A stretch of DNA of 64,000 bases from contig NZ_JNXI01000004.1 in the NCBI RefSeq assembly GCF_000717055.1, positions 310,001 to 374,000 of the forward strand. The letters run 5' to 3'. How positions within the stretch are numbered: the first letter of the stretch is position 1; every line of letters starts with the position of its first letter. A model generated the notes under the pieces. It was not told the origin of the DNA and searched no databases. It saw only the letters and a program-made list of their open reading frames with translations. Made by a program: the position numbers and the translations under genes. Source of the stretch: Streptomyces iakyrus (GTDB lineage: Bacteria; Actinomycetota; Actinomycetes; Streptomycetales; Streptomycetaceae). Of the stretch, positions 33,199 through 47,993 are shown piece after piece.

Positions 33199-35745
33199 TC
33201 ACCGCCAGATGGACTTCAGCTGCCAGGCACGGAGGTCGTCGAGGGTGGCGGTGCCTCCCTCGGCGAACACCTCGACGCCGGTGCTGGAGGGATCGGGGAA
33301 GATCTGGTCGGTGATCACGGCCTCGCCGCGGCCGCCGAAGACCTCCACGGACGACCAGTCGACGAGGATCCGCAGCCTGACCTTGCCGTTCTCGGCCTTC
33401 AAGGGCGCGGTCTGCACGCCGGGGAAGGTGCTGCTGAAGTCCCCCGCGCCGGATCGGCTGCGGTCGACGTACAGCTCCTGGGCGGCGGTGTCGTAGCCGA
33501 TGACGGTCTCCTCGCCGCCCGCACCGGTGCGTACCTTCAGGCCGAAGCGGTCCGCGTCCTTGAGGGAGAAGGTCGCCTCGATGTCGAGCGCCTTGCCCTT
33601 GGCCCCGAGGCCGGTCAGGGACTTCGAGGTGCTCTCGACGGTGACGCCGGACGCCGTGGCAGGGTTCTTCCGCCGGAGGGACTCCAGAGGGCCCACCGGC
33701 TTGCTGGTCAGCCGGATCCGGCCGTCGACGGTACGCAGGGCCATCTCCCTCGGGACGCTCTGCACGCCGCGCCACGGTGAGGTCGGGACGGACTGGCCGT
33801 AGTCCCAGTTGTTCATCCAGCCGATCATGTAGCGCTTGCCGCCCGGCGCGTCCTCCCAGGACACGGCCGCGTAGTAGTCCTTGCCGTAGTCGGCCCAGTC
33901 GGCGCGCTGCAGAACGGACTCGGCGGGCTTGTCCGCGGTGGTGAACCGGTCGGCCAGTACGTGGCCCCAGCCGCCGGTGTTCATGTCGACGATCCTGATC
34001 TGCGCCTCCTTGCCGATGTATGGACGCATGTCGAAGGACGCCCAGTCCAGGGCCTCACTGTCGGTGCCGGTCACGCTGCGGACGACCTTGCCGTCGACGA
34101 TCAGGTTGACGGACGTCTCCTGGGAGGCGCGCTGGACCGGGGTGTCGGACACGACGATGTGGTCGGCGTTGACATGGCCCCAGCCGCCGGTGTTGTCGTC
34201 GACGATCCTGATCCGCGCCTTCTTGCCGGCCAGGTCGCCGACGTCCCACGAGGCCCAGTCGAGCGCCTCGGAGTCCTTGCCCGTGGCGCTGCGCACGACC
34301 CGGCCGTCCACGAGGAGTTCGACGGCGGTGGGGCCGGCCCCTTCTGCCGGGTGGTTGCCGCCGCCGATGAGGAAGTTGATGTGCTTCTTGTCGACGGTGA
34401 ACTCGGGCGAGGTGAGGGTGCCGGTGGTGGAGTCGCCGCTCCGGAAGGTGTTGACCAGGCCGCTGCCCAGGTATCCGGAGACGTGTTGCTGGCCGGGGAG
34501 GGTGCCGTTGGCCGGTGCCGTGCCGAAGGCGTCCCCGGTCGCCGTCCAGTCGCCGTAGCCGCCGCCCTCGAAGTCGGCGAGGACCGTGCCCTCGGGCGCG
34601 GTGCCGTCCAGGACGGTGCCGGCCTTGTGCGGATGCCGCCCGCCACCGATCTTGAAGTTCAGGTAGGGGCTGGTCACGGTGAAGGAGGGGGAGGTGAGGG
34701 AGCCGGTGGTGCCGTCACCGCCGTGGAAGCTGTTGGCGAGGCCCTTGCCGTCGAAGCCCGAGACGGCTTGCTGACCGTCCAGCGTACCGGTTGCCGGTCT
34801 CTGGCCGAACGCGGTCCCGGTCGCCGTCCAGTCCCCGAAACCGTCGCCCTCGAAGTCCTGCACGACATCGCCCGTGGGCGGTGTGTAGGTGCCCTTGTCG
34901 TCAGGGGTGAACTTCTTGCCGTCGAAGTCTCCGACGAAGTACTGGGCGGCCGAACCACCCGCGATGCCACCGGGGTTGAGGTTGACCACCAGGACCCACT
35001 TGATCTTCTTCGGGTCCCCGTCGACCGCGAGGGGGAACAGGTCGGGGCACTCCCACACACCGCCCGTCGCACCGGCGGGCCCGAACTCGCTCTGCAGGTC
35101 CCAGTCCTTGAGGTTCTTGGACGAGTAGAACCGCACCTTGTGCTCGACGGACAGGGACACGGTCATCAGCCAGCTCTTGGTCGGCGCGTACCACTGGACC
35201 TTGGGGTCGCGGAAGTCCTTGGAGCCGATGTCGATGACGGGATTGCCCTGGTACTTGGTCCAGGTGCGGCCCCGGTCGGTGCTGTAGGCGAGCGACTGGG
35301 CCTGCTTGCCGCCGTTCTTGTAGGCACTGGTGTAGATCGCCACCATGGGCGGGTTCTCCTTCGTGCCGAACCCGGTCGTGTTGTTCCAGTCGACCACCGC
35401 GCCGCCGGAGAACACCATCTCCTCGTCGTCGTGCGACAGAGCGAGCGGCAACTCCTCCCAGTGCACGAGGTCCTTGCTCACTGCGTGCCCCCAGGACATG
35501 GCGCCCCAGGAGTTGCCGTTCGGGTTGTACTGGTAGAAGAGGTGGTACTCGCCCTTGTAGTACACGAGACCGTTGGGGTCGTTCATCCAGTTCTTCTGCG
35601 GGGTGAAGTGGAACTGGGGCCTGTAGGTCTCGGTGTATGTCTGTGCGGCGCCCTGCGGGGTGAGCGGGGCCGCCGACAGGACGAAGGCGGTCACCACCGA
35701 CGCCACCCGCATGCGGGCCTGCCGGGATACGCGTATACGGCTCAT
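33199..35745 (-). CDS. Secreted GH32 levanase with nested inserted modules
   Basis: 848 residues from the ATG at 35745 (AAGGAG 6 nt upstream); signal peptide to about residue 34. GH32 propeller: nucleophile Asp56 in NWMNDPNG (52-59), Asp180 in FRDP (178-181), acid/base Glu232 in ECPD (232-235), and C-terminal beta sandwich (about 690-848). Residues about 297-602 are inserted between propeller strands: half-module A (297-370), A' (391-464), B' (475-531), B (546-602), i.e. one complete A'B' domain nested inside a second copy AB. The propeller resumes at ADWADYGKDYYAAVSW. Typical levanases lack such a large insert at this point. It would release fructose from levan for the importer. Confidence 0.93.
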   Translation of the reverse strand: MSRIRVSRQARMRVASVVTAFVLSAAPLTPQGAAQTYTETYRPQFHFTPQKNWMNDPNGLVYYKGEYHLFYQYNPNGNSWGAMSWGHAVSKDLVHWEELPLALSHDDEEMVFSGGAVVDWNNTTGFGTKENPPMVAIYTSAYKNGGKQAQSLAYSTDRGRTWTKYQGNPVIDIGSKDFRDPKVQWYAPTKSWLMTVSLSVEHKVRFYSSKNLKDWDLQSEFGPAGATGGVWECPDLFPLAVDGDPKKIKWVLVVNLNPGGIAGGSAAQYFVGDFDGKKFTPDDKGTYTPPTGDVVQDFEGDGFGDWTATGTAFGQRPATGTLDGQQAVSGFDGKGLANSFHGGDGTTGSLTSPSFTVTSPYLNFKIGGGRHPHKAGTVLDGTAPEGTVLADFEGGGYGDWTATGDAFGTAPANGTLPGQQHVSGYLGSGLVNTFRSGDSTTGTLTSPEFTVDKKHINFLIGGGNHPAEGAGPTAVELLVDGRVVRSATGKDSEALDWASWDVGDLAGKKARIRIVDDNTGGWGHVNADHIVVSDTPVQRASQETSVNLIVDGKVVRSVTGTDSEALDWASFDMRPYIGKEAQIRIVDMNTGGWGHVLADRFTTADKPAESVLQRADWADYGKDYYAAVSWEDAPGGKRYMIGWMNNWDYGQSVPTSPWRGVQSVPREMALRTVDGRIRLTSKPVGPLESLRRKNPATASGVTVESTSKSLTGLGAKGKALDIEATFSLKDADRFGLKVRTGAGGEETVIGYDTAAQELYVDRSRSGAGDFSSTFPGVQTAPLKAENGKVRLRILVDWSSVEVFGGRGEAVITDQIFPDPSSTGVEVFAEGGTATLDDLRAWQLKSIWR

Positions 35746-36150
35746 AGCGGCTCCTTGTCCCACGGCCGTCGACGCGGCGGTGGGGAGGAACCCTGCGCGA
35801 CGACCGAGAAGTGCACCCCGGCCCGACGAAGGCTGCCCCGTCGTCACCCGAGGGTGTCATCGTTGACTTGTGTCATCGATGACAGTGGCTGCCCGATTAT
35901 GAGACGCAGTCAGGTGGCCGCGTCAACGGTCCGGAAGTGATTGGTCCGGCGCGCCCTGTGGGAGTCAGGGCGTCGATCTACCCCCGCCGACCGGGCAAGG
36001 GCGAACGGACTCGTCGCCGGTCGCACGTCGCACATCATCGACCGTGACATAGGCCACCCGTGTGCATCCGCAGCGCGTGTGTTTGCGTTCGCGTCGGCTG
36101 GAAAGTGGCTCTGTAGTCATGTGACCGAAAGCCGGGAAAGAGGAGGTCCG
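35746..36150. other. 405-bp intergenic region, levanase to bL37
   Basis: Holds the leftward levanase promoter and paired operators (35855-35926) and, further right, the presumed rightward promoter of the bL37 gene. No Zur-like box or other clear site was seen before bL37. No additional coding sequence is convincing here. Confidence 0.6.
35855..35926. promoter_or_regulatory. Levanase promoter with two operators 16 bp apart
   Basis: Operators: TGTCATCGTTGACT (35855-35868) and the perfect palindrome TGTCATCGATGACA (35871-35884), starts exactly 16 bp apart. Leftward promoter: TTGACG (complement of 35921-35926), N19, CATAAT (complement of 35896-35901). Layout and site sequence repeat those of the importer promoter at 29276-29348, so both should answer to the same LacI protein. 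Confidence 0.75.
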
Positions 36151-36228
36151 ATGTCCTCGAAGCGACGTCGCAAGAAGAAGGCCCGCCGCAAGAACGGCGC
36201 GAACCACGGCAGTCGTCCGCAGTCCTGA
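36151..36228 (+). CDS. bL37-type 50S ribosomal protein (25 residues)
   Basis: A strong GAGGAGGT precedes the ATG by 4 nt. The peptide starts MSSKRRRKKKARRKNGANHG, and ends SRPQS. Extremely basic, it resembles the actinobacterial ribosomal protein bL37 (about 24 residues, lysine/arginine-rich then ANHGKRP), first seen in mycobacterial ribosome structures. The SRPQS tail departs from the usual KRPN ending, so this may be a second, diverged copy. Followed by an 18-bp perfect hairpin, as expected for a single-gene transcript. Confidence 0.75.
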   Translation: MSSKRRRKKKARRKNGANHGSRPQS

Positions 36229-36247
36229 GCGTCGTGCGGGCACGCTG

Positions 36248-36289
36248 ACGCAAACGGGTGAGTGGCACCTGCCACTCACCCGTTTGCGT
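36248..36289. terminator. 18-bp perfect hairpin terminator after bL37
   Basis: ACGCAAACGGGTGAGTGG (36248-36265) pairs without mismatch with CCACTCACCCGTTTGCGT (36272-36289), loop CACCTG. Starts 20 bp after the bL37 stop. One of the strongest structures in the window. Confidence 0.92.
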
Positions 36290-36321
36290 TCGCAGGGGCT
36301 TCACGGCCTCGCACATGGCGT

Positions 36322-36363
36322 GGTCGAGGACGTCACCCGCCCCCATGGGCGACGTCCTCGACC
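36322..36363 (-). terminator. Hairpin terminator downstream of the metzincin-like gene
   Basis: GGTCGAGGACGTC (36322-36334) pairs perfectly with GACGTCCTCGACC (36351-36363); the loop holds a further GCCC/GGGC stem (36339-36350). It lies 53 bp beyond the stop of the leftward gene at 36417. Confidence 0.85.
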
Positions 36364-36416
36364 GCTCCCCCGGTGCCGGACTGTGGCTCAGGTGCCCGCG
36401 CGGCGGATCCGTGCCG

Positions 36417-37499
36417 TCACCAGCACATCACCGCCGTCCCGCCGGAACCCCAGGCGGAGTACAGGCGTACGCGGACGACGTAGCGGCGGCCCTTGACGAG
36501 CCGGGCGCCGATCGTGGCGTTGTGCGGAGTTCCCCCGTCGTCCCGGCCGGCGAGGTAGCGGGGCTCCCAGTCCCGCTCCTCGAAGAGCACCATGACGGCG
36601 TCGCAGTCGCCGAAGACGGCCAGCGTGTAGCTGCGGGTCTCCGGCGGGTCGATCACGAAGTCCGCCTGCTCGCCGGGTCCGGTGCCGAGCGGCGCCGAGC
36701 GGAACGGCACCAGCGCGGGCGATCCCTGCGGATGCGCCGGCGGATACCAGCGCAGCACGGACTCCTTGTCGGCGGCGGACAGCGTGCCGGGCGGATGCAG
36801 ACCCCCGCGGTACTGCTCCGGCTCCAGGATCAGCCCCGGCGGGAAGGGGAACCCCATGACCGACTGCGGGTCCCAGACACCGTCGGCCTCGTCCGGGCCG
36901 AGCTTGCGCAGGATGTTGTAGTGCGTCCGCTCGCGGCTCCAGTGGTGGGGCGGGCCCGCCAGTTCGGCGTACACAGCCTCGTCGTCCCAGTGGATGCCCG
37001 CGAACGGGCTCTGGTGCTCGTGCAGCAGGCCGAGCGCGTGGCCGATCTGGTGCAGGGCCGCCCAGCTCTCCCCGGGCGCGGTCAGGTCCCAGCCGAAGTT
37101 CATGGTGCGTTCCCGCCCGCCGGCCGGGAGCGCCTCCCGGCCCACCCTCGACCAGGAGCCGTCGCCGGCCTGGAACCCGCTGCGCAGTTCGGCCTCCGAG
37201 CGGTCGCCGACCTCGGCGAAGGTGATCCCGATGCCGAGGTCCTGCCACTCCCGGAAGGCCGCGCGCACCACCTCCCGCTGCTCCTCGGCGCCGGCCCACG
37301 ACACCCGCCGCGTCATCCCCCTCCCCGGCACGGGGATGACGGACGCGTCGGAGTCGCCGTCGAAGAACCAGTAGTGCAAGACGGTGCCGTTGACCCACAT
37401 CCGCCGCCCGCTCGCGAGCGCGCTCAGCCGCTCGGCCGCCAGCCCCGGTGCGAAGGCGGGCGCCGGCGCCTGAGCCAGCGAGCAGTAGCGTGCGGTCAT
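36417..37499 (-). CDS. Metzincin-like (M12A/astacin-type) protein with altered active site
   Basis: 360 residues, no signal peptide. The zinc site reads ALHQIGHALGLLHEHQSP (residues 148-165): ligands His150, His154, His160 are present but the catalytic base, Glu in HExxH, is Gln151 (codon CAG). A Met-turn candidate SVMGFPFP follows (about 216-223). After about residue 260 a C-terminal beta-rich domain occurs (QADFVIDPPETRSYTLAVFG...GRRYVVRVRLYSAWG), like the pre-peptidase/PPC folds. Zinc binding is plausible, peptide hydrolysis doubtful. Divergent from the LuxR regulator, sharing its promoter region. Confidence 0.78.
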   Translation of the reverse strand: MTARYCSLAQAPAPAFAPGLAAERLSALASGRRMWVNGTVLHYWFFDGDSDASVIPVPGRGMTRRVSWAGAEEQREVVRAAFREWQDLGIGITFAEVGDRSEAELRSGFQAGDGSWSRVGREALPAGGRERTMNFGWDLTAPGESWAALHQIGHALGLLHEHQSPFAGIHWDDEAVYAELAGPPHHWSRERTHYNILRKLGPDEADGVWDPQSVMGFPFPPGLILEPEQYRGGLHPPGTLSAADKESVLRWYPPAHPQGSPALVPFRSAPLGTGPGEQADFVIDPPETRSYTLAVFGDCDAVMVLFEERDWEPRYLAGRDDGGTPHNATIGARLVKGRRYVVRVRLYSAWGSGGTAVMCW

Positions 37500-37544
37500 G
37501 GGCCATAGCCTGCCCCGCGGCCCGCCCCCGGCGCCTGAGTCGGG

Positions 37545-37591
37545 GGCTACTCAAGTCGCCCTGTATCAAGAGTGAGTAGCCGCGCTCATGT
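37545..37591. promoter_or_regulatory. Promoter region with island motif CTGTATCAAGAG-N12-CTCATGT
   Basis: CTGTATCAAGAG starts at 37561 and CTCATGT at 37585. The same pair with the same 24-bp offset occurs at 42017/42041 before the S8 protease. A 9-bp inverted repeat GGCTACTCA (37545-37553)/TGAGTAGCC (37573-37581) surrounds the first box here only. If CTCATG is a -10, the start of transcription falls near the GTG at 37596, which would make the LuxR mRNA leaderless. Interpretation as an ECF-type promoter is inferred. Confidence 0.5.
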
Positions 37592-37595
37592 CTGT

Positions 37596-39320
37596 GTGAC
37601 GACTTACGAGCGGGACGCGACGACGCTGGAGCTGCCCTGGCCGTTCGCCGGGCGGGAGGACGAACTGGAACTGGCCCGCCGGTCGTTGACCGGCGTGCGG
37701 CGCGGCATCGTGGTGACGGGCCCGGCCGGCTGCGGGAAGACCCGTCTCGTCACCGAGGCGATCCGCGGCACCGATTGCGCCCGGGCGGCCGGCACGCCCG
37801 AGAGCCGGGCCATCCCCTTCGCGGCGTTCGCGCATCTGCTCCCCGAGTCGGTCACCCTGCACCGCGCGGTCCAACTGCTGTCCGGTGTCCGCACGCTGCT
37901 GGTGGACGACGCGCACCTTCTCGACGACGCCTCCGCCGCCCTGGTCCATCAGCTCGCCGTGCACGGGCGCACCCGGCTGCTGGTCGTCGCCACCGCCGGC
38001 GCTCCCGTGCCCGGCGCGGTCTCCCGGCTGTGGACCGGCGAACTCCTGCCGCGCCTCGCGCTGGAGCCCCTGGCGGAGGAGGAGACCGGCCGGCTGCTCA
38101 CGGCCGGCGCCGGCCCTCTCGACGCGCTCACCCTCAACCGGCTGCGCCGCCTGAGCCGGGGCGACCTGCGGCTGCTGCGCGACCTGCTGGGCGCGGTGCG
38201 CGGGCAGCTGACCCCGGTCCCGGACACCGGCGAACGCGCGTGGCGGGGCCCGGTCCCGCTGACCACGGCCGTACGAGAACGCACCGCCCCCGTCCTCGGC
38301 CGGAGCCGCCCCCTCGAACGGGAGACCCTCGACCGCCTCGCCTTCGCCGAGCCCCTGCCCCCGGACCTGGACGACCTGGACCTCGGGGCTCTCGAAGCGC
38401 TGGAGTCGGACGGCCTGATCGAGGTCGACGACCACGGGGCCGTCCGACTCGCCCACCCCCTGTACGGGCCGGTGCTCCGGGCCGCGGCGGGCCGGCTGCG
38501 GGCCCGCCGGCTGGCCCGGGCACCGGAGGAGTACGCCGCCGCCCTCGACGCCGAGTGCGCGGACCTGACCCGCCGCATCGACCGGGCCGACGTACGGGCG
38601 ACGGCCAAACCGGTGGGGGAGTGGCAGGTCGCCGAGGGCGGCCCCCTGCCGGGCGGGTACGCCGCCGTGCGCGCCCGCTATGCGCGGCTGCGCGGGGAGG
38701 TGCGGGAGGCCGCCGCCTGGGCCCGGGAAGGGCTGCGGAGCGAGCCCGCGCACGCCTCCTGCCGCGCGGAACTCCACCGCGCATCGGCGACGGTGGACAG
38801 CCCGGGCGACCTCGGCCCGGAGGCCTTCACCGACCCCTACGACGCCGTCCGCCTCGGCGCCCCCGACCAGGCCGTCGACCGCCTCGGCGGCGTCTTCGCC
38901 CGGCATGCCGACGCCCTCACCCGCGCCGACGGCCCGGAGCTGGACGCGGTGGCCGGGGAACTGGAAAGGCGCGGCTTCCTGCTGTTCGCCGCCGAAGCAC
39001 ATGCCCAGGCCGTACGCGCCCACCGGGACCCGCGCGCCGCCCGGCACTCCCGCACCCGGGCGGTCGCCCTGGCCCGGCGCTGCCAGGGTGCCCGCACCCC
39101 CGCGCTGGCCGGGCTGGTCCTCGGCGAACTCACCGCCCGCCAGCGGCAGATCGTCACCCTCGCCGCGGCCGGCCTGACCAACCGGCAGATCGCCGAACGC
39201 CTCACCCTGTCGGTCCGCACCGTCGGCAACCACCTGTACAGCGCCTACGCCCGGCTCGGCGCGAGTGACCGCGGCGCCCTGCCGTGGACGGCCCACGCGC
39301 CGCAAGCCCAGCCGGCCTAG
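37596..39320 (+). CDS. LuxR-family regulator with N-terminal AAA-type ATPase domain
   Basis: 574 residues from the GTG at 37596; a GTG 24 bp upstream (37572) is also possible but overlaps the promoter motif. N-terminal P-loop: Walker A VTGPAGCGKTRLV (about residues 40-52) and Walker B TLLVDDAHLLDD. The middle is helical and repeat-like. C-terminal GerE/LuxR helix-turn-helix: LTARQRQIVTLAAAGLTNRQ followed by IAERLTLSVRTVGNHL. It belongs to the large LAL-like regulators but is shorter than the usual 900 residues. Likely controls the protease island. Confidence 0.88.
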   Translation: MTTYERDATTLELPWPFAGREDELELARRSLTGVRRGIVVTGPAGCGKTRLVTEAIRGTDCARAAGTPESRAIPFAAFAHLLPESVTLHRAVQLLSGVRTLLVDDAHLLDDASAALVHQLAVHGRTRLLVVATAGAPVPGAVSRLWTGELLPRLALEPLAEEETGRLLTAGAGPLDALTLNRLRRLSRGDLRLLRDLLGAVRGQLTPVPDTGERAWRGPVPLTTAVRERTAPVLGRSRPLERETLDRLAFAEPLPPDLDDLDLGALEALESDGLIEVDDHGAVRLAHPLYGPVLRAAAGRLRARRLARAPEEYAAALDAECADLTRRIDRADVRATAKPVGEWQVAEGGPLPGGYAAVRARYARLRGEVREAAAWAREGLRSEPAHASCRAELHRASATVDSPGDLGPEAFTDPYDAVRLGAPDQAVDRLGGVFARHADALTRADGPELDAVAGELERRGFLLFAAEAHAQAVRAHRDPRAARHSRTRAVALARRCQGARTPALAGLVLGELTARQRQIVTLAAAGLTNRQIAERLTLSVRTVGNHLYSAYARLGASDRGALPWTAHAPQAQPA

Positions 39321-39337
39321 CCCGGGCGCCCAGGACC

Positions 39338-39374
39338 GGCGGCCTGACCCGGACAGGGGACGGGTCAGGCCGCC
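39338..39374. terminator. Hairpin between convergent LuxR and CHAT genes
   Basis: GGCGGCCTGACCCG (39338-39351) pairs perfectly with CGGGTCAGGCCGCC (39361-39374), 9-nt loop. It overlaps the last codons of the CHAT gene and lies 17 bp after the LuxR stop; can act in both directions. Confidence 0.85.
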
Positions 39375-41971
39375 CCGAACGCCGAGAACGCCCACCCCGT
39401 GGCCTGGTGCAGGGCGTCGTCCGGCTGGGCGGCCCGGGCGTCGCGCAGCGCCTCCGCCAGGGACAGGCCGGCGTCGAGGCCCTTGTGCAGCGCCAGCATC
39501 AGCGGCACCACCGCGGCGTCGTTGACGGGGGCGCTGCACGCCACCACCCCGGCCGTGCCCAGCGGCAGCAACGCCGTGACCAGGCCCAGCAGTTCGTCGG
39601 CGCCGACCGAGGCGAGGCGGGCGGTGTCGCAGCAGGACAGGATGATCCGGTAGGGGCTGCGGTCCAGCCGCTCGAAGTCGTGCACGACGATCGGCCCGTC
39701 GGCCATCCGCAGCGACGAGAACAGCGGACTGTCCGCACGGAACGTGCCGTGCGCGGCGATGTGCGCCAGCGCGGCCCCGTCCAGCTCCTCCAGCACCCGC
39801 GGCACCCGCGCCCCGTCCCCTTCAAGGACCGTCGCGCAGCCGTACCGGCCGGCCAGCTCGGGCACCTCGGCACCGCCGGTCGCCAGGCCCGGGCCGCGCA
39901 CCAGTACGTGGCAGCCGTCCGGCGCCGGCGCGGTCTCCCGCGCCCGCAGCCAGCTGCCCGCCGACGGCGACACGCTGAGCACCCGCTCCCGCAGCGACGG
40001 GAGCAGCGCCCACGGCACCCGGTGCAGCCGCCCCGGCGGCACGATCACCACCGGACCGCCGCCCAGGTGCGCGGCGGCCGGTCCGAGGAGCAGTTCCTCC
40101 AGCCGCCGCCCCGCCGCCTCCACCACCGGGAGCCGGGCCTCCGCCCCGGGGTGGGCCAGCCGCCGCAGCCCCGCCTGGACGTGTTCGGCCTCGCTCTCCG
40201 CCTCGGCGAGCAGCCCGGCCTCGAACCGGCGCACCCGCCCCCGCCCGCACAGCAGCACCTGCACCCGGCCGCCGAGCACGGCGAGTTCCACCAGCAGCAC
40301 CTCGCCGCCCAGGTGCTCCAGCAGCCGGCCGACGTCGAACCGGGCCCCGTCCCCGAGTGCCTCTCCCCGAATGTGCAGGGTCCGGGAGCGGATCTCCCGC
40401 TCCAGGCGCCGCTGTTCGCGCTCCAGCGCCGGGACCGGCCGGCCCTCCATCCGGGCGGCCTCCGCACGCGAAGCGATCTCGCGGAAGGCGGTCATGCCGC
40501 TGAGCAGTTCCGGGTCGGCGGGCGGCCGCGTCGGCGGGGTGGACAGCGCCGTGGCCCGCCAGCGCTCGCTCCACACCAGCAGCCGCCGCGGCCCGCCGGA
40601 GACCAGACTGGCCCGCTGCGCCAACGCCGCCAGTTCCGCGCCCTGTTCGGTGGCACGCGCCCGCAGCTCCGAGGCGCCCAGCGTCATCCGGTGGTCGTCC
40701 AGCACGTCCAGGCCCCGTCGGCAGGCCTCCAGCACGCCCCGGGCCGACCCGGCGGCCTGCGCCCGCAGCGCCTGCGCCGCCCAGCCCGTCAACCGCGCCA
40801 GCGGCGGACCGCTGCGCCGGCTGCGCGCGGCCACGGCCAAGTGCCGCTCCGCGTCCGCCGTCCAGCCCAGGTCCAGCGCGATCCGGCCCGCGAGCAGCGA
40901 CGCCTCCGGCGCGGCCGGAGCGCCGAAGGAGGCCAGCTTCCCCGCCACCGCGGCGGCGTCGGCGACCAGCCGCCCCGAGCCGCGCCCGGCCGCGTGCCGC
41001 GCCTCGATCAGCACCAGCCGGGCGTGCGTCTCCCACCAGGTGCGCCGCTGCCCGGCGAACAGCCGTACCGCGAGGGCCGCGCGGGCGATCGCCGTATGCG
41101 CGTCGCCGGCCAGTCGCGCGGCCCGTGCGGCGGCCAGCAGCAGCTCAGCCTTGCGGGTGGACTGCCCGCCGATCCCGTCCAGCTTCCCGATCGCCGCGTC
41201 CGCCTCGGCCAGCGCCTCCGGCGCGAGACCGGCAGCCATCAGCACCTCACAGCGCCGGATGTTCAGCATGAACGTCGGCGTGCCGAGCCGGGCGTAGCGC
41301 TCCTCCGCCTCGTCCAGCAGCCGCAGCGCCACCGGCACGTCCCCCGACCGGAACGCGGCCAGGCCCCGGCTCTCCACCGCGTCGGCCTTGTCGTGTTCCT
41401 GGCCGGTGGTGTCCCACAGCGCCTCCGCCGCGGTGAAGTCCGCCTCCGCCCGCTCCACCGCCCCCAGCGCCAGATGCACGGTGGCCCGCAGGGTCAGCGT
41501 CCGCGCCGTCCAGATCACGTCCTCCGCCTGCCGCAGCACCGGCACCGCCCGGCGCACGTCCTCCAGCGCCTCGCGATGGTGGCCGAGCACCCACCACACG
41601 TACGCCCGCCGGTACAGCACCCGCGCCCTGGTGTGCCCGCCGCCGCGCGCCACACCCCGCTCGAACGCCGCCAGGCCCTCCCGGGTGCGGCCCGCATGCA
41701 CCAGCGCCACGCCCAGCGTGGCCAGCACGTCCGCCTCCCGGTCGGCCGAGTCGGCGCGCGCCGCGCACTCCCGGGCCCGCCGAAGGTGGTGCAGTGCGAG
41801 CCGCAGATCGCCGAAGTCCCGCTGCCAGATGCCGATCACCTGGTGGGCCACCGAGGCGGCCGGCGGGGCGGGGTCGGCGTCGAGCAGCGCCCGGGCCCTC
41901 GCGAGAGCCTCGCCCGGGTCGGCGAACACCATCGGCAGCAGTTCCGTAACCGAGTCGCTTCCCGCTGTCAC
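39365..41971 (-). CDS. TPR-CHAT protein (caspase-like protease)
   Basis: 868 residues from the GTG at 41971; no proper ribosome site, and an ATG at 41932 is an alternative. Residues about 20-400 are tetratricopeptide-like helical repeats (e.g. ALHHLRRARECAARADSADR, REALEDVRRAVPVLRQ). The C-terminal CHAT domain (about 640-868) has both dyad residues: His741 in AHIAAHGTF and Cys780/781 in ILSCCDTARLA (family consensus SxCxT). CHAT is a caspase-related cysteine peptidase; TPRs usually sense a partner or a signal. No secretion signal, so cytosolic. Divergent from an S8 protease and sigma factor, suggesting a proteolytic signalling cascade. Confidence 0.88.
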   Translation of the reverse strand: MTAGSDSVTELLPMVFADPGEALARARALLDADPAPPAASVAHQVIGIWQRDFGDLRLALHHLRRARECAARADSADREADVLATLGVALVHAGRTREGLAAFERGVARGGGHTRARVLYRRAYVWWVLGHHREALEDVRRAVPVLRQAEDVIWTARTLTLRATVHLALGAVERAEADFTAAEALWDTTGQEHDKADAVESRGLAAFRSGDVPVALRLLDEAEERYARLGTPTFMLNIRRCEVLMAAGLAPEALAEADAAIGKLDGIGGQSTRKAELLLAAARAARLAGDAHTAIARAALAVRLFAGQRRTWWETHARLVLIEARHAAGRGSGRLVADAAAVAGKLASFGAPAAPEASLLAGRIALDLGWTADAERHLAVAARSRRSGPPLARLTGWAAQALRAQAAGSARGVLEACRRGLDVLDDHRMTLGASELRARATEQGAELAALAQRASLVSGGPRRLLVWSERWRATALSTPPTRPPADPELLSGMTAFREIASRAEAARMEGRPVPALEREQRRLEREIRSRTLHIRGEALGDGARFDVGRLLEHLGGEVLLVELAVLGGRVQVLLCGRGRVRRFEAGLLAEAESEAEHVQAGLRRLAHPGAEARLPVVEAAGRRLEELLLGPAAAHLGGGPVVIVPPGRLHRVPWALLPSLRERVLSVSPSAGSWLRARETAPAPDGCHVLVRGPGLATGGAEVPELAGRYGCATVLEGDGARVPRVLEELDGAALAHIAAHGTFRADSPLFSSLRMADGPIVVHDFERLDRSPYRIILSCCDTARLASVGADELLGLVTALLPLGTAGVVACSAPVNDAAVVPLMLALHKGLDAGLSLAEALRDARAAQPDDALHQATGWAFSAFGAA

Positions 41972-42016
41972 TCCTCGGATGGTAGTGGTCCCGGAGCGCA
42001 CGACACAGGTGTCGAG

Positions 42017-42047
42017 CTGTATCAAGAGATGGCGGCGCGGCTCATGT
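42017..42047. promoter_or_regulatory. Island motif CTGTATCAAGAG-N12-CTCATGT before S8 protease
   Basis: CTGTATCAAGAG at 42017-42028 and CTCATGT at 42041-42047, identical in sequence and spacing to 37561/37585. The spacing between TGTATC and CTCATG is 17 bp, compatible with -35/-10 boxes of an alternative sigma factor, possibly the one encoded at 43595. The box lies in the 130 bp between the CHAT and S8 starts. Confidence 0.5.
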
Positions 42048-42101
42048 TGACGACCGCTCAGCGGAACCGGCCGACGCCGTCGCACCCACGGGAGGACCCG
42101 C

Positions 42102-43532
42102 ATGGCACCTCAGCGATTCCACGAGCAGTTCGACCAGATCCAGCGCTCGATGCCGGACGTCCCCCTGGCGATGGGCCCGGACGACTCGGCGGAGTTCATG
42201 TACGAGAAGGGCGTGGTCCTCGTCCGGGACGGCGAGGAGGCCCGGATCGTCGAGGACACCGTACGGGCCCACTTCACGGCCGCACCCGACCTCGACCAGG
42301 AGCAGATCCGCCGCGCGGGCCCGCAGACCAACCGCAGCGGCATCACCCGCATCCGCGTCGGCGACCCCGGGGAGGGCGGCCGGGACACCGACCGCGCCGT
42401 CGCCCACGCCCTGCGCTCCGTCCGGGAGCACGAGTCCCGCGCCGGGCACCGGATGGTCGCCCGCAACCACGTCGTGCACATCGCGGTCAACGCCTGCCCC
42501 GGCGACGAACCCGTCCCCGCCCCGCTCAGCGAGCCGCCCAACCCGGCCGCCGCCGGCACGCCCCACGACCCGGACACCGCCGTCGGCGTCCTCGTCGTCG
42601 ACACCGGCCTCATGCACGACTACCGCTCCTGCGGCCTGCTCGCCCACACCGGCGGCGACGCCCAGGTCCAGGAGTGCGACGACCGGGGCGTCCTCCAGCA
42701 GTACGTCGGCCACGGCACGTTCATCGCGGGGCTCGTCGCCGCCGTCGCGCCCAACACCGACATCACCGTGCGCGGCAGCCTCAACGACGCGGGTGCCGTC
42801 CTGGAGTCCGAGTTCGGCGAGAAGCTCTTCGAGGCCGTCGACGCGGGCGGCTGGCCCGACGTGCTCAGCCTCTCCGCCGGCACCTCCAACGGCCGCACCG
42901 ACGGCCTGCTCGGCGTCGAGAACTTCATGCGGGAACTGCGCGAGCAGCGCACCCTGCTGGTCGCCGCCGCCGGCAACAACGCCAGTGCCGCGCCCTTCTG
43001 GCCCGCCGCCTACGCCGATCTGCCCGGCTGGGAGGACTCCGTGCTGTCGGTCGGCGCCCTGCGCAGCGACGGCGAGTCCGGCGCCTGCTTCACCAACCAC
43101 GGCCCCTGGGTGAAGGTCTACGCCCCGGGAGAGCGCCTCACCAGCGCCCTCACCGGCTTCGAAACACCCGTCCCGTACGTGTACCAGCACTCCACGTACG
43201 ACGCCTGCCGCTACGGCTTCTCCTACGGCTGCACCTGCCAGCACCCCCGCCACAGCGGCGTGCTGAGCGACGAGGGCGACGCCGCCAAGCCGGACCAGGT
43301 GATGTTCGAGGGGTACGCGCAGTGGAGCGGCACCTCCTTCGCCACCCCCGTGACCGCCGGCCTGGTGGCCGCCCACATGACGGCGCACAAGGAGACCGAC
43401 CCGCGTGCGGCCCGGCGGCAACTGCTGGCCGCCGACGCGGAGTTCACGGAGGTGCGCGGTGCGCAGGTCCCGGCGCTGCGTCCGCCCACCTGGCGCCCGG
43501 TCCCGGTCGTGCGCCTCGGCCCCGGACTGTGA
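42102..43532 (+). CDS. Cytoplasmic subtilisin-family (S8) serine protease
   Basis: 476 residues, GGGAGGA before the ATG. Complete triad: Asp167 in VLVVDTGLM, His204 in GHGTFIAG, Ser412 in GTSFATP; oxyanion Asn292 in AAAGNN. There is no signal peptide and no obvious inhibitor propeptide; residues 1-150 form a separate N-terminal region (with MYEKGVVLVRDGEEARIV) that may be a regulatory domain. Cys-rich insert around 369-380 (CRYGFSYGCTC). Sits 62 bp before the sigma factor gene on the same strand and divergent from CHAT. Intracellular targets unknown. Confidence 0.9.
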   Translation: MAPQRFHEQFDQIQRSMPDVPLAMGPDDSAEFMYEKGVVLVRDGEEARIVEDTVRAHFTAAPDLDQEQIRRAGPQTNRSGITRIRVGDPGEGGRDTDRAVAHALRSVREHESRAGHRMVARNHVVHIAVNACPGDEPVPAPLSEPPNPAAAGTPHDPDTAVGVLVVDTGLMHDYRSCGLLAHTGGDAQVQECDDRGVLQQYVGHGTFIAGLVAAVAPNTDITVRGSLNDAGAVLESEFGEKLFEAVDAGGWPDVLSLSAGTSNGRTDGLLGVENFMRELREQRTLLVAAAGNNASAAPFWPAAYADLPGWEDSVLSVGALRSDGESGACFTNHGPWVKVYAPGERLTSALTGFETPVPYVYQHSTYDACRYGFSYGCTCQHPRHSGVLSDEGDAAKPDQVMFEGYAQWSGTSFATPVTAGLVAAHMTAHKETDPRAARRQLLAADAEFTEVRGAQVPALRPPTWRPVPVVRLGPGL

Positions 43533-43594
43533 GGGCCGGGGCCGTCCCCTCCACGGCGTACGATGACGTGCCGTATTCGAGGGGTGGGGCTGCC

Positions 43595-44170
43595 GTGGAC
43601 CGTACTGATGCCGGCGCGCTCGTCCGGGCAGCCGCCGACGGTGACGCGGCGGCCTGGAAGGCGCTCGTGGAAGGGCTGAGCCCGCTGGTCTGGTCCGTCG
43701 TCCGGGCCCACCGGCTCTCCGACGCCGACGCCCACGAGGTCTACCAGACGGCCTGGTTCCGCTTCGCCCAGCACCTCGGGCGGATCCGCGAGCCCGGCAA
43801 GGCCGGCGCGTGGCTGGCCAGCACCGCCCGCCACGAGTGTCTCAAGGTCATCAGGAACTCCCAGCGGCTGACCCTGACGGACGATCCGCGGCTGCTGGAC
43901 CGGGTCAGCGAGGACGGCACACCGGAACAGTCGCTGCTCGACTCGGAGGAGGCCGCCGCGCAGAGCGAACGCGTCCGGCGGCTGTGGCAGGAGTTCGAGG
44001 AACTGGGCGAGCGGTGCAGGCAGTTGCTGCGCGTGCTGATGGCCACGCCGCCGCCCAGCTACCAGGACGTGTCCGCCGCGCTCGGAATCGCGGTGGGCAG
44101 CATCGGGCCGTTGCGCCAGCGCTGTCTGCGGCGTCTGCGGGCCCGGCTTCAGGCACGGGGGGCGATATGA
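43595..44170 (+). CDS. ECF-type sigma-70 family RNA polymerase sigma factor
   Basis: 191 residues from the GTG at 43595. Sigma region 2: LVRAAADGDAAAWKALVEGL, DADAHEVYQTAWFRFAQHL, AGAWLASTARHECLKVIRNS. Region 4: CRQLLRVLMATPPPSYQDVS then AALGIAVGSIGPLRQRCLRRL. It overlaps the next gene by 4 bp (ATGA). Follows the S8 protease, so its activity may be governed by proteolysis of a partner. It may read the shared motif upstream of its own operon and of the LuxR gene; inferred. Confidence 0.88.
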   Translation: MDRTDAGALVRAAADGDAAAWKALVEGLSPLVWSVVRAHRLSDADAHEVYQTAWFRFAQHLGRIREPGKAGAWLASTARHECLKVIRNSQRLTLTDDPRLLDRVSEDGTPEQSLLDSEEAAAQSERVRRLWQEFEELGERCRQLLRVLMATPPPSYQDVSAALGIAVGSIGPLRQRCLRRLRARLQARGAI

Positions 44171-44697
44171 GTGACATGAACGGCGACAGGTACGACGACG
44201 GACTGTACGACCACGACCTGTACGAGGACGACCTGTCCGGCGAAGGGGACTTCGGCGACGAGGAGTTCGACGCCGGGATGCTGGAGGAGGAACTGCGGCA
44301 GGCCGCCGCCGTCCTCGACCCGGTGCCGCCGGAGCTCCAGCAGATCGCCGTCGACGCCTACGCGCTGCACGACCTCGACGCGCGCGTGGCCGAGCTGACC
44401 TTCGACTCACTGGTCGACGCCCTCCCGGTCCGGGGCGTCACCGACACGCCCCGGATGCTGACCTTCCGGGCGGGAGAGGTGACCGTCGACGTCGAGGTGA
44501 CCGCGCAGGGGCTGATGGGCCAGGTGCTGCCGCCGCAGCCGGCCCGCATCGAGATCCTCGGCGGACCGCGGCCCGGCTTTCCGCTCACCGCCGACGACCT
44601 GGGCCGCTTCACGGGCGACGTGCCGCTGTCCGGCCCGTTCGCCCTGCGGTTGCGCACCGGCGGGGACGTGGTGGTGACGGAGTGGCTGCGGGCCTAG
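44167..44697 (+). CDS. Acidic protein coupled to the sigma factor, unknown function
   Basis: 176 residues. The first 50 residues are strikingly acidic (YDDGLYDHDLYEDDLSGEGD, then FGDEEFDAGMLEEEL). A short helical part follows (VPPELQQIAVDAYALHDLDA), then a beta-rich C-terminus (MLTFRAGEVTVDVEVTAQGL). No membrane segment and no zinc motif of classical ZAS anti-sigma factors. The 4-bp overlap with the sigma gene suggests a partner, perhaps an anti-sigma factor or a protease substrate. I do not recognise the family with certainty. Confidence 0.7.
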   Translation: MSDMNGDRYDDGLYDHDLYEDDLSGEGDFGDEEFDAGMLEEELRQAAAVLDPVPPELQQIAVDAYALHDLDARVAELTFDSLVDALPVRGVTDTPRMLTFRAGEVTVDVEVTAQGLMGQVLPPQPARIEILGGPRPGFPLTADDLGRFTGDVPLSGPFALRLRTGGDVVVTEWLRA

Positions 44698-44716
44698 ACA
44701 CCCGCTGCGGGCCCGG

Positions 44717-45505
44717 TCAGCGGGACACGGCGTCGACCAGCCCGGCCAGTGCGGCGGCCAGTCGCTCCAGGCCGGGCCCGGCGGAACCGCCCGGCTCGGT
44801 CATATAGGTGTCCCGGCGGATCTCCACCATGAGCGCGCTCACCTCGGGCCGCTTCCCGTAGAACTCCAACGGGACGTAGGTCCCGCCGAACGGCGTGTCG
44901 AGTTCCGTCTCCCCGAACGCCTCCCGGGCCGCGTCGAGCAGCGCGGGAGGCGTGTGGAAGGAGTCGGTGCCGAGGCAGACCGGTGGGCGCGGCCCCTCCC
45001 CGTGCAGTTCGTACGGCAGCCTCCGGCTCGGGTAGGAGTGCACGTCGATGATCACGGCCCGCCCGGTGGCCTCCAGCCGGTCCGCCACCGCCCGCGTCAT
45101 CGCCCGCGCGTACGGCTCGAAGTACTGCTCGACGAGGGGCGTGGCGTCGACGTCGTCGGGCCGCAGCACCCGGCCGTGCGTGGTGCGCGTGTAGACCGCT
45201 CCCATCCCGACGGCGAGCATCTCCTCCCGCTCGTCCGGAAACCGCTCCGGATCGACGACCAGCCGCGACAGCCGATTGACGAACCGCCACGGTGTGACGC
45301 CGGCCGGCCCGGCCGCCGCCTCGGCGATCTCCGTCGTGTGTGCGTCCGTGATGTGGTCCAGCTCCCGTGCCAGCTCCTCGTCGTCCAGGACGATTCCCGC
45401 CCGCACGGCGGCGGGTATCTCCCGCGCGGAGTGCGGCACATGGAGGATCACAGGCGACTGCCGGTCGCCGGGCAGCAGCTCGAAGGAGGGCGGGACGTCG
45501 GTCAC
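44717..45505 (-). CDS. N-formylglutamate amidohydrolase
   Basis: 262 residues, start GTG with GGAG 5 nt upstream. Family motifs: ILHVPHSAREIP (residues 20-31), RFVNRLSRLVVDPERF, the metal-binding VIIDVHSYPSRRLPYE, and EIRRDTYM. The zinc-dependent enzyme hydrolyses N-formyl-L-glutamate to glutamate and formate, the last step of one histidine pathway. No hut genes are nearby. It is convergent with the acidic-protein gene 19 bp away. Confidence 0.9.
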   Translation of the reverse strand: MTDVPPSFELLPGDRQSPVILHVPHSAREIPAAVRAGIVLDDEELARELDHITDAHTTEIAEAAAGPAGVTPWRFVNRLSRLVVDPERFPDEREEMLAVGMGAVYTRTTHGRVLRPDDVDATPLVEQYFEPYARAMTRAVADRLEATGRAVIIDVHSYPSRRLPYELHGEGPRPPVCLGTDSFHTPPALLDAAREAFGETELDTPFGGTYVPLEFYGKRPEVSALMVEIRRDTYMTEPGGSAGPGLERLAAALAGLVDAVSR

Positions 45506-45810
45506 GGGGGCTCCGGGGGAGTGGTCAGTTGGTGGAGGACGTGCAGGTGCCCTTGCCTCGTGTCTGTCATGCCCGGCGTCCTCCGTTGTTCTGTGTCCGG
45601 CAGGGTAGAGCCCAACCGGGTCGGCCGCTCGCCCTCGCCGGTGAACTCCTGCCGCGCCGCCCGATGGTCCGGCTCATCGGCCGGACGGCCGGCCGCCGGC
45701 AGACGCAGCAACGTCCATTGTCAGCGGGGACGTTGTCCCAGCGAGCGTTTCGTGTTCCACTGATCTCCCTCCGTAACGTCGATCACCCGCTCCCGGGCGG
45801 GAGAGTCTCC
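45506..45810. other. 305-bp intergenic region before the NTPase operon
   Basis: Divergent promoter region between the amidohydrolase and the NTPase gene. Base composition is a little lower in GC near 45720-45780 (TTCGTGTTCCACTGATCTCC), where a rightward promoter would be expected. CTCCCGGGCGGGAG (45790-45803) is a short hairpin overlapping the GGGAG ribosome site. No gene or clear operator found. Confidence 0.5.
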
Positions 45811-47988
45811 ATGGGGGGATCCGTGGGTGAGGATCTGGGGTTCGAGAGACTTCTCGAAGAGGAAGGTTTCTTCGCGCGCCTGCTCGGGCGGTCGCCCTCG
45901 GGCGGTGGCAGCAAGCTGTTGTACGGCCCCGACCTTCCCGTTGTGCTGCTCACCGGCGGCCCGGGGATGGGCAAGGGGCGGCTGCTGCGCTTGGTGCGCG
46001 ACCGCTTCGCCGCCAAAGTGCCCGTGATCTATCTGGACTGCGCGTCACAGGCGTACGAGGACGACGCGGGGCCGGAACCGGGCGCCCGCTCGGATCTCAC
46101 CGAGGCCTTGGTCGACGTCGCCGGGCGGCTGCGCGCGTGGCAGGGAACGGGCGGCCCGTTCGTCTTTCCGCGGTTCTTCGCAGGCCTCACGATGATCGCG
46201 ACCGGCGCTGCGGATCGCAGCCCCGAAGCGGTCAGGAGGGAAGTCGAGCGCTACGAGAACCTGCCCCAGCAGCAGGGCCTGCGCGGACTGGGAACCGGTG
46301 GGTTCTGGCGGAACGTGCTCATCGGAGTCATCCGCAATCTGCTGAACACCCTCGCCGGACAGTTGCTCGGCACACCCGGCGCCTCCGTGGCCGGCGCCCT
46401 GCTGGAGGCGCTCTTCGCGAACGCGGCGCCCAAGGGCAGGGGGGAACTGACGCGGATCTACGGCGCCTATCCCACCGCGGGCCACCAGCCGGAGCACGGG
46501 CTGCTCGATCTCGCCACGGACTTCAAGGCCGGCGGCGAGGCACGGGAGGTGGCGGAGCGCTTCCTCTTCCGGGCGCTGCGCGAGGACATCGAGGCGGCGT
46601 ACGACGGCCCGGTCGGCTGGCTGAGCCGCGTCGGCCGCCCGGCACTGCTCCTGGACCACGCCGACTCTCCGCTGGGAGAGCGATTGCTGCGGGCCGTGCT
46701 CTCCGACCGGCGCGACGGACAGCGCGACCGCGTGGTGATCGTGGGCACGGCACGCCAGGAGGACGGCGGCGCCTTCCTGTACGGAGGGCTGTCGCCCGAG
46801 GACGCGGGGTACCCGGCGGAGTACCGGCCCGCCGACGGAATACCGGCCACATGGTCCCGGAACACGGGCCCGCAGCCGGACCAGGCGCCTTTGGCCGACG
46901 GGGTACTCCTCCTGCGGATGCCCTTTCTCACCGGTGACCAGCTCCGTGACGAGACCCTGCGAAGACAGCGGCGCACGGAGCCGGAGAGCGGCGCGAACCG
47001 CCGCCGTGTCGTCGCCGCCGTGGCCCGGCTGAGCGGCGGGCGTCCGCACACGGTGATCCGGCTGGCCGCAGCAGCCGCCACCTTCCGGATGCCGACGGAC
47101 GCCAACGACCGAGACCTCCTCGACGCCCCGCTGCGCCACCCGGACGGCGCCGCCGAACGGCCGGTGACCGACGTTTTGCTGCAGGAGCTGATCCTGGACC
47201 AACTGCCGACAGAGCTGCCGGACGAGCACCGTGACCAGTGGCTCGATCTGATCACCCATCTGTCGGTGGCCCACGGCATGGAATGCGCAGACGTCCTGCT
47301 GCTCCACCATCAGGCCCACCGGGTCTCCGTCCTGACAGCACATCAGGTCGCCAAACTGCTCACCGAAACCGGGTGGCCCGGCTGTGAACGGCACTTCATC
47401 GGGGACTTCGGGCTGCGTCAGCTGCTCGTGCACCGGCTCTACGGACTGCGCCCCGACGGCGCCGCCTGGCACGCCGACCACCATCTGCTGCGCGACCACT
47501 ACGCCCTGCGCGCGGCGGACGACGGGGCGGCGAGTGGCGAGGCGTTCCGTTCCCTCACAGCGCACCGGATGAACCACCACCTGGTCTCGGGCGGCGCGGA
47601 CGACGTGGTCCGCCACCTCGCCGCCACGCTGCCCGGCCGCCCCCGGGAGTGGTGCGCGGAGCTGCTGGAGATCGCGCAGGCTCCTTGTCCGGGCGGCGCG
47701 GACGCCCGCCGTGTGCGCGCCCAGGGTCTGGTGCCGATGGAGGGACCCGCGCTGCGCCGCACCGTCGACCAGCTGCTGCACGCGGTGTGGCTGTGCGAGG
47801 AGCGGACCAGGCCGACCGGGAGCGAGATGGCCCGCACGCTGGCAGGCCTGCTGGAGCGTCTGTCGATCATGGAGTTCGACGGCGCCGGAGATCTCGGCCC
47901 GACGGCCACCGAGTGGAGCGGCCTGGCGGCGAACCAGCGGCCGCTGCTTCGCTGTTCCTGCACCGATCAGCTCGGGCGACGGAGGTAA
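45811..47988 (+). CDS. Large P-loop NTPase with altered Walker A, paired with membrane receptor
   Basis: 725 residues from the ATG at 45811 (GGGAG 7 nt upstream). Walker A region TGGPGMGKGRLL: Gly56 replaces the usual Ser/Thr after Lys55. Walker B candidate ALLLDHAD (278-285). The insert between them is long (about 220 residues) with hydrophobic NVLIGVIRNLLNTLAGQLLG. C-terminal half is helical with IIx repeats typical of STAND-like ATPases but no named sensor domain. Its stop is 5 bp before the receptor gene; the two must work together. No family name can be given with confidence. Confidence 0.75.
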   Translation: MGGSVGEDLGFERLLEEEGFFARLLGRSPSGGGSKLLYGPDLPVVLLTGGPGMGKGRLLRLVRDRFAAKVPVIYLDCASQAYEDDAGPEPGARSDLTEALVDVAGRLRAWQGTGGPFVFPRFFAGLTMIATGAADRSPEAVRREVERYENLPQQQGLRGLGTGGFWRNVLIGVIRNLLNTLAGQLLGTPGASVAGALLEALFANAAPKGRGELTRIYGAYPTAGHQPEHGLLDLATDFKAGGEAREVAERFLFRALREDIEAAYDGPVGWLSRVGRPALLLDHADSPLGERLLRAVLSDRRDGQRDRVVIVGTARQEDGGAFLYGGLSPEDAGYPAEYRPADGIPATWSRNTGPQPDQAPLADGVLLLRMPFLTGDQLRDETLRRQRRTEPESGANRRRVVAAVARLSGGRPHTVIRLAAAAATFRMPTDANDRDLLDAPLRHPDGAAERPVTDVLLQELILDQLPTELPDEHRDQWLDLITHLSVAHGMECADVLLLHHQAHRVSVLTAHQVAKLLTETGWPGCERHFIGDFGLRQLLVHRLYGLRPDGAAWHADHHLLRDHYALRAADDGAASGEAFRSLTAHRMNHHLVSGGADDVVRHLAATLPGRPREWCAELLEIAQAPCPGGADARRVRAQGLVPMEGPALRRTVDQLLHAVWLCEERTRPTGSEMARTLAGLLERLSIMEFDGAGDLGPTATEWSGLAANQRPLLRCSCTDQLGRRR

Positions 47989-47993
47989 CGGGG

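What the first reader, a model, noticed from the sequence alone, without database searches (positions are those of the whole stretch)
36417..44697. Protease-rich island: TPR-CHAT, cytoplasmic S8 protease, ECF sigma, acidic partner, LuxR and a pseudo-metzincin
Seen: a caspase-like TPR-CHAT protein with His/Cys dyad, a divergent S8 protease with an intact triad and no secretion signal, an ECF-type sigma factor, an acidic protein translationally coupled to it, a LuxR/AAA regulator, and a metzincin-like protein without the catalytic Glu. Known: CHAT domains are caspase-related and act in bacterial conflict and programmed-death systems; sigma activity is often controlled by proteolysis. Inference: a stress- or phage-triggered cascade in which CHAT activates or is activated by S8, and one of them cuts the acidic protein to release the sigma factor. 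I know of no described system with this gene set.
Basis: partly seen in the sequence, partly recalled or inferred. Interest (0 to 1): 0.78.

Follow-up and report, generated by a model that had tools for sequence, protein, structure and literature searches.

The report
Putative protease-gated sigma factor switch
Next to known antibiotic-control genes in a Streptomyces genome sits a conserved set of two proteases, a sigma factor and a small acidic protein that looks like a switch in which cutting the acidic protein frees the sigma factor; the gene set is already in print, but the likely cut site, the promoter and the link to an antibiotic repressor may be new.

Summary
The genes are as described, and the core is a real system. 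TPR-CHAT, S8 protease, ECF sigma and acidic protein occur together in 13 of 13 same-genus loci fetched and in 44 of 80 named actinobacterial loci picked by the sigma alone. Of 296 phylum genomes, all 20 with a credible acidic protein also have this CHAT.

Catalytic residues of both proteases are conserved. The CHAT model resembles Csx29 of Craspase and separase. The acidic protein is helices plus an Ig-like domain, joined by a disordered linker holding an invariant Arg (228 of 228 listed database relatives): a likely cut site.

A two-part promoter (TGTATCA-N16/17-CTC) lies before S8 and before the LuxR gene absR2, here and in relatives. So absR2, a published repressor of antibiotics, is probably an output.

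Best model: CHAT cuts the acidic anti-sigma; freed sigma drives its own operon and absR2. Binding and cleavage are inferred.

Prior art: a review names this neighbourhood as ECF54, proposing sigma degradation without an anti-sigma. A phage trigger and a stable 'pseudo-metzincin' are not supported.

The parts
36417..37499 (-). AbsR1 (SCO6992-type) metzincin-like protein; neighbour, not part of the conserved core
   Evidence: NF050131 E 3.5e-208; astacin/matrixin weak; Glu-to-Gln at residue 151 in this genome, Glu intact in 7 of 11 aligned orthologues
37562..37587 (+). Promoter-like site of absR2: TGTATCA-N16-CTC; CTC ends 8 nt before GTG 37596
   Evidence: of 12 same-genus loci with absR2 (window included) 12 have TGTATCA there and 11 the strict CTC (read)
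37596..39320 (+). AbsR2 (SCO6993-type) LAL/LuxR regulator, probably leaderless start at 37596 (longest ORF starts at 37572)
   Evidence: NF050132 E 8.7e-294; the 37572-type start is not available in L023, L025-L029, which start at or after the 37596-type position
39365..41932 (-). TPR-CHAT protease (start 41932 or 41971); His728 codon 39749-39751, Cys768 codon 39629-39631
   Evidence: PF12770; His728 and Cys768 in 53 of 53 aligned and 14 of 14 added; model pLDDT 92.6
42018..42043 (+). Promoter-like site TGTATCA-N16-CTC of the S8-sigma-acid operon, in the CHAT/S8 divergent gap
   Evidence: of 14 same-genus loci (window included) 14 have TGTATCA there and 12 the strict CTC (read; L020 and L024 have GTC)
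42102..43532 (+). S8 subtilase, predicted cytoplasmic; Asp167, His204, Ser412
   Evidence: PF00082; triad invariant in 14 of 14 orthologues and 12 of 12 aligned across the phylum
43595..44170 (+). ECF sigma factor, GTG start
   Evidence: TIGR02937 72 bits over cut-off 42.9; sequence
44167..44697 (+). Acidic protein, candidate cytosolic anti-sigma: acidic low-confidence tail, helices 36-49 and 55-83, linker, Ig-like domain 96-170
44428..44436 (+). V88-R89-G90 in the low-confidence linker: predicted protease cut site
   Evidence: R89 in 61 of 61 and 228 of 228 listed database relatives; pLDDT under 50 at residues 87-90

Best explanation
A cytosolic proteolytic switch for an ECF sigma factor. (1) The sigma is made together with, and held inactive by, the acidic protein, whose helical half binds it [inferred]. 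(2) A signal sensed through the TPR superhelix turns on the separase/Csx29-like CHAT protease [inferred]. (3) CHAT cuts the acidic protein after Arg89 in the disordered linker, parting the helical half from the Ig-like half; S8 removes the remaining inhibitor fragment or amplifies the cut [inferred]. (4) Freed sigma transcribes from TGTATCA-N16/17-CTC promoters [inferred from strong sequence evidence], raising S8, sigma and its own inhibitor and, in Streptomyces and several Planotetraspora/Microbispora/Actinomadura/Thermomonospora relatives, an AbsR2-like LAL regulator [likewise]. (5) AbsR2 represses antibiotic activator genes [shown in S. coelicolor by others]. Shown here: conserved gene set, intact catalytic residues, sigma-acid gene overlap, invariant Arg, shared promoter-like site.
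Against: No binding, cleavage or transcription was measured. The acidic protein has no detectable anti-sigma domain; its role rests on position, gene overlap and the linker Arg. The Arg could serve sigma binding instead. Three distant loci have an acid gene without a sigma found in the stretch (L054, L056, L061), and one duplicated unit (L069) has a second acid gene without its own sigma. 10 of 80 sigma loci lack the acid protein. Genome-wide the promoter pattern is not in excess: 47 matches in the 14 quartet genomes against 49 for the backward control, and 12 of 20 genomes without the quartet also have at least one match (my sums); only position speaks for it. The strict site is missing from 17 of 44 quartet loci and from L191-L193, L203, L204. 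SCO6995 transcript was reported to depend on AdpA, with an AdpA-like motif in its promoter, so other control exists. Which protease cuts is a guess; four Dactylosporangium loci have S8 without CHAT within 10 kb.
Confidence: 0.5

Rival explanations
1. The published ECF54 view: no anti-sigma; the proteases keep sigma low by degrading it until a signal stops them.
For: Review PMC8999054 section 3.3 (passages) proposes this for ECF54 from the same kinds of neighbours. S8 and sigma are adjacent in one direction, which fits negative feedback.
Against: It leaves the acidic protein unexplained. That protein matches CarboxypepD_reg, by name a regulatory-like domain, weakly in 10 of 21 members, and no carboxypeptidase enzyme family; its gene overlaps the sigma gene and it carries the invariant linker Arg. 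Overexpressed SCO6995 lowered antibiotics, the direction expected if sigma and absR2 rise, though this is indirect.
Confidence: 0.2
2. A conflict or phage-defence system, with CHAT and S8 as toxic effectors.
For: A TPR-CHAT protease acts in CRISPR type III-E (PMC10028731, abstract and passages); caspase systems with ECF sigma factors are discussed as conflict systems (PMC8195603, passages); patchy presence, 14 of 150 family genomes by single sequence.
Against: No PADLOC match beyond a generic subtilase and, for the LuxR protein, CARF and weak GajB models; same chromosomal neighbours in relatives (FGase in 13 of 13, isocitrate dehydrogenase in 12 of 13); predicted output at the locus is a regulator of antibiotics.
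Confidence: 0.12
3. The acidic protein is a scaffold or delivery adaptor that brings sigma to a protease, or a co-activator, rather than an inhibitor.
For: Ig-like sandwich suits protein binding; no known anti-sigma domain found.
Against: The invariant Arg in a disordered linker is more easily read as a cut site.
Confidence: 0.15
4. The TGTATCA...CTC element is an operator of another regulator, not the sigma's promoter, so absR2 is not tied to the sigma.
For: The site is partly palindromic in some loci (CTGTATCAG); genome-wide matches do not exceed the backward control; SCO6995 is reported AdpA-dependent.
Against: Two parts with 16 or 17 bp spacing fit -35/-10; the two published AbsR2 footprints in its own promoter have other sequences and, by the window sequence, the nearer one lies upstream of the site (PMC9628970, passages); the site also accompanies sigma in 4 of 10 loci with sigma alone, two of them directly before a LAL-like gene (L095, L099).
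Confidence: 0.1

Closest known systems
ECF54 group of ECF sigma factors (review PMC8999054, passages read; primary papers Casas-Pastor 2021 and Huang 2015 not held)
   Same: ECF sigma with carboxypeptidase-, subtilase- and CHAT-domain proteins nearby; proteolytic control proposed
   Different: There: degradation of sigma without anti-sigma. Here: acidic protein as candidate cut inhibitor, invariant Arg, promoter, AbsR2 as output
Craspase / CASP (Csx29, Csx30, CASP-sigma; PMC10028731, abstract and passages read)
   Different: Extra S8 protease here; no CRISPR partner was seen among nine scanned neighbours, but none was searched for by name; the acid profile found no significant PDB sequence
DdvA, titled transmembrane anti-sigma factor (PDB 8rot/8rw5; title only seen, paper not read)
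   Different: DdvA is titled transmembrane and anti-sigma; here no membrane segment was noted in CHAT and a separate acidic partner exists
Separase
   Different: Eukaryotic cohesin protease; no shared partners known to me
absR1/absR2 of S. coelicolor (PMC9705864, PMC9628970, passages read)
   Same: Same families by NCBIfam equivalog models
   Different: The passages read do not treat CHAT, S8, sigma or the acidic gene

Membership tests
ECF54 | Subtilase and CHAT proteins and a 'carboxypeptidase' protein in the sigma's neighbourhood | tested here: met
   (the third only as weak CarboxypepD_reg matches)
ECF54 | Match to the ECF54 sequence model / member SFT86700.1 | not testable with these tools
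   No ECF classification library here; primary papers not held
Craspase/CASP (type III-E) | TPR-CHAT protease with His/Cys dyad | tested here: met
Craspase/CASP (type III-E) | Cas7-11 (gRAMP) effector and CRISPR array beside it | tested here: inconclusive
   Nine neighbouring frames at 33199-49649 had no Cas family in Pfam; array and whole genome not searched
Craspase/CASP (type III-E) | Csx30 as substrate and sigma inhibitor | tested here: inconclusive
   Acid profile found no significant PDB sequence; whether Csx30 chains are in that set was not checked
Anti-sigma factor (acidic protein) | Downstream of and translationally coupled to its sigma | tested here: met
   4-bp gene overlap available in 14 of 14 same-genus loci (L021 by an alternative start); coupling itself not measured
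Anti-sigma factor (acidic protein) | Binds and inhibits the sigma | not testable with these tools
Metzincin protease (AbsR1) | HExxHxxGxxH with catalytic Glu | tested here: not met
   HQIGH in the window; Glu present in 7 of 11 aligned orthologues
Subtilase S8 | Asp/His/Ser triad | tested here: met

The most novel reading that the evidence does not exclude
A separase-like bacterial CHAT protease, without CRISPR, cuts a cytosolic anti-sigma at a phylum-wide near-invariant VR|(G/S) site to release an ECF54-type sigma, which re-arms its own protease-inhibitor operon and switches on the antibiotic repressor AbsR2; type III-E CRISPR may have recruited such a module.
Probability: 0.35. Interest if true: 0.82.

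Novelty: new variant of a known kind. Interest (0 to 1): 0.64.

Why it matters
It gives the ECF54 kind of sigma a concrete, testable mechanism: a named cut site, named promoters and a named output. It would show CHAT proteases controlling sigma factors outside CRISPR, and would tie the long-studied absR genes to a proteolytic signal, bearing on how Streptomyces times antibiotic production.

Tried and rejected
Phage-defence reading: PADLOC scan gave nothing specific. AbsR1 as core protease: absent in 3 of the 13 fetched same-genus loci (L021, L023, L024) and reported without protease activity (PMC9705864, passages). AAA and periplasmic-binding-like genes at 45811-49649 as parts: seen in only 1 of those 13 loci (L017). 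Single-sequence acid search suggested a one-genus family (14 of 150); the profile showed this was a sensitivity limit. The weak acid hit in G425/L070 (35 residues inside a 937-residue frame) was treated as false and dropped from the counts. S8 tandem repeats as a general feature: found in a minority only. Fold searches with the acidic protein gave no confident relative beyond beta sandwiches, on residues 91-176. The site at G000:C1:359440 lies inside an open frame that looks dndC-like (name recalled from the sequence) and was taken as chance; the fourth, C30:24794, was not examined. Sites of the pattern outside the loci were followed only in 7 quartet genomes.

Rows dropped: A10 holds 5 of the 17 distant acid sequences of A6 and leaves out the more diverged ones; in A6 Arg89 is kept in 20 of 21 (L068 has Gln). 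In one search the column read R in 93 of 101 profile-found acid stretches; of the other 8, L069 and L141 show an R shifted beside the column, five are partial or weak stretches (L092, L094, L122, L126, L137), and L195 lacks a clear one. The 228 proteins are the rows listed (best 120 per search) of 892 and 1085 hits, so weaker hits were not seen.

Literature: ten searches found no paper on this quartet's mechanism; the ECF54 remark came from reading passages of PMC8999054. That cut site, promoter and AbsR2 link are unpublished rests on these searches alone, and the two primary ECF papers were not held. Passages of PMC11256431, PMC6295645 and PMC7730460 were searched without a finding on this system.

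Full report
WHAT IS THERE. The window lies in a 9.1 Mb genome; named relatives of its proteins are Streptomyces, and I call its genus so by inference. From left to right: a metzincin-like gene (-), a LuxR/LAL gene (+), TPR-CHAT (-), and then S8, ECF sigma and acidic protein in one direction (+), the last two overlapping by 4 bp. NCBIfam identifies the first two as AbsR1 and AbsR2, i.e. SCO6992 and SCO6993. By order, and by what papers call SCO6995 (putative intracellular serine protease, PMC2936110, passages) and SCO6996 (sigma factor, PMC9739823, passages), the S8 and sigma are very likely SCO6995 and SCO6996; I did not align them to S. coelicolor.

IS THE LINKAGE REAL. The acidic protein was found in 14 of 150 family genomes by single sequence; in all 13 other loci CHAT, S8, sigma and acid are adjacent in the same order. 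With a profile, the acid protein appears in 21 of 296 genomes of the phylum, one hit weak. Of 18 distant loci fetched, 10 hold all four genes, 1 lacks S8, 3 have sigma and acid, 3 acid only, and 1 is the weak hit. Several loci are cut by contig ends; two (L124, L128) look like duplicates. From the CHAT side, 37 of 296 genomes have this CHAT family at E up to 1e-30, including all 20 with a credible acid protein (hypergeometric 2.8e-21, which ignores kinship). Eight of the 17 apparent CHAT-only genomes were fetched; all eight have sigma, acid and S8, the acid at E from 1e-6 to 8e-21. In G265 and G234 the CHAT-S8 pair lies apart from the sigma-acid pair in the same genome (L055/L197, L058/L199); G190 and G332 also have CHAT-S8 pairs apart from an acid gene. 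So the genes tend to occur together without needing to be neighbours.

THE ACIDIC PROTEIN. No Pfam or NCBIfam family matches it in the window; 10 of 21 relatives match CarboxypepD_reg weakly, which may explain the 'carboxypeptidase' in the ECF54 description. The model (61 sequences, pLDDT 81.5) has a low-confidence acidic tail, helices 36-49 and 55-83, a low-confidence linker, and a beta sandwich 96-170. The only residue invariant outside the sandwich and the start is Arg89, in the linker where most flanking columns vary strongly. In the 228 listed database relatives, 108 of them new and most of those at 35-56% identity to the window protein, it is Arg in all 228. In A6, which keeps the most diverged loci, it is 20 of 21; profile-found stretches gave 93 of 101, the rest shifted, partial or weak. 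A fixed Arg in a floppy joint is what a protease site looks like; a binding role is not excluded.

THE PROMOTER AND THE LUXR GENE. Aligning the CHAT/S8 gap of the 14 same-genus loci showed a fixed TGTATCA. Word counts found TGTATC in 18 of 32 S8 upstream regions against 0.6 expected. A second half, CTC, sits at offset 16 or 17 in 59 cases, against 19 cases summed over 22 other offsets, in the 80 named loci; 47 of the 59 lie within 500 bp of a quartet gene. The window genome has four TGTATCA-N14-17-CTC sites in 9.1 Mb, as many as the backward control, but two of them are exactly before absR2 and S8. In 34 same-genus genomes the same holds: 47 matches in the 14 with the quartet, 49 for the control there, 23 matches in the 20 without it (my sums); about half of the 47 lie in the quartet locus. 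So the evidence is position, not number. Among other genera the site precedes AbsR2-like LALs in L073-L077 and L079 (42-48% identity to AbsR2 over the best segment) and more distant ones in L095 and L099; in 9 of the 10 LAL cases the start codon begins 8-9 nt after CTC, i.e. leaderless by inference. L095 runs off its contig and showed no HTH in Pfam. The two AbsR2 footprints reported in SCO6993's own promoter (PMC9628970, passages) do not contain this site. Hence absR2 is probably a target of the sigma. The strict site is absent from 17 of 44 quartet loci.

MECHANISM. As in Best explanation. It parallels the CASP system, where a TPR-CHAT protease cuts Csx30, an inhibitor of an ECF sigma (PMC10028731, abstract and passages). 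The order of S8 and CHAT in the cascade, the trigger, and the identity of the cutter are open. AdpA dependence of SCO6995 shows that other control exists.

PRIOR ART. PMC8999054 (passages) lists ECF54 as controlled by proteolysis, citing carboxypeptidase, subtilase and CHAT neighbours. New here, as far as ten library searches show, are the candidate substrate with its invariant Arg, the promoter, the AbsR2 link and the co-occurrence without adjacency.

Noticed in passing
L057, L063, L065, L067, L068, L069 (two copies), L149, L194, L195, L196: S8 proteases of diverged quartets carry arrays of a hexapeptide (e.g. NPAYQG, HPFWGG, GYGDGV), different in most; 11 of 74 S8 frames. In the seven aligned the array lies between the N-terminal and catalytic domains.
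   Followed up: partly
L184-L190 (7 of 14 same-genus quartet genomes): A further TGTATCA-N16-CTC site in gaps between genes, followed by ACGGGGGAA-like repeats and no convincing ORF: possible sigma-dependent small RNA. Contexts of sites in the 20 genomes without quartet were not examined.
   Followed up: partly
window 36417-37499 and orthologues: AbsR1 active-site Glu is Gln in 4 of 11 aligned orthologues; the Met-turn SIMEY-type motif is altered in three of these four (window, L017, L027) but not L022.
   Followed up: partly
L069 (G245): Two S8-CHAT-acid units side by side, only one with a sigma.
   Followed up: no
L102, L105, L117, L124, L128, L116: The promoter-like site precedes a gene of about 220-245 aa beyond CHAT, with a CarboxypepD_reg-like C-terminal domain where Pfam was run (L105 and L116 only).
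   Followed up: partly
L118, L121, L133, L138 (Dactylosporangium): S8-sigma-acid without CHAT within 10 kb; in L121 and L138 an FHA-ABC transporter gene lies in the opposite direction upstream of S8.
   Followed up: partly
window 45811-49649: An AAA-like protein and a membrane-anchored, possibly binding-protein-like partner, present beside the quartet in only 1 of 13 fetched relatives.
   Followed up: no
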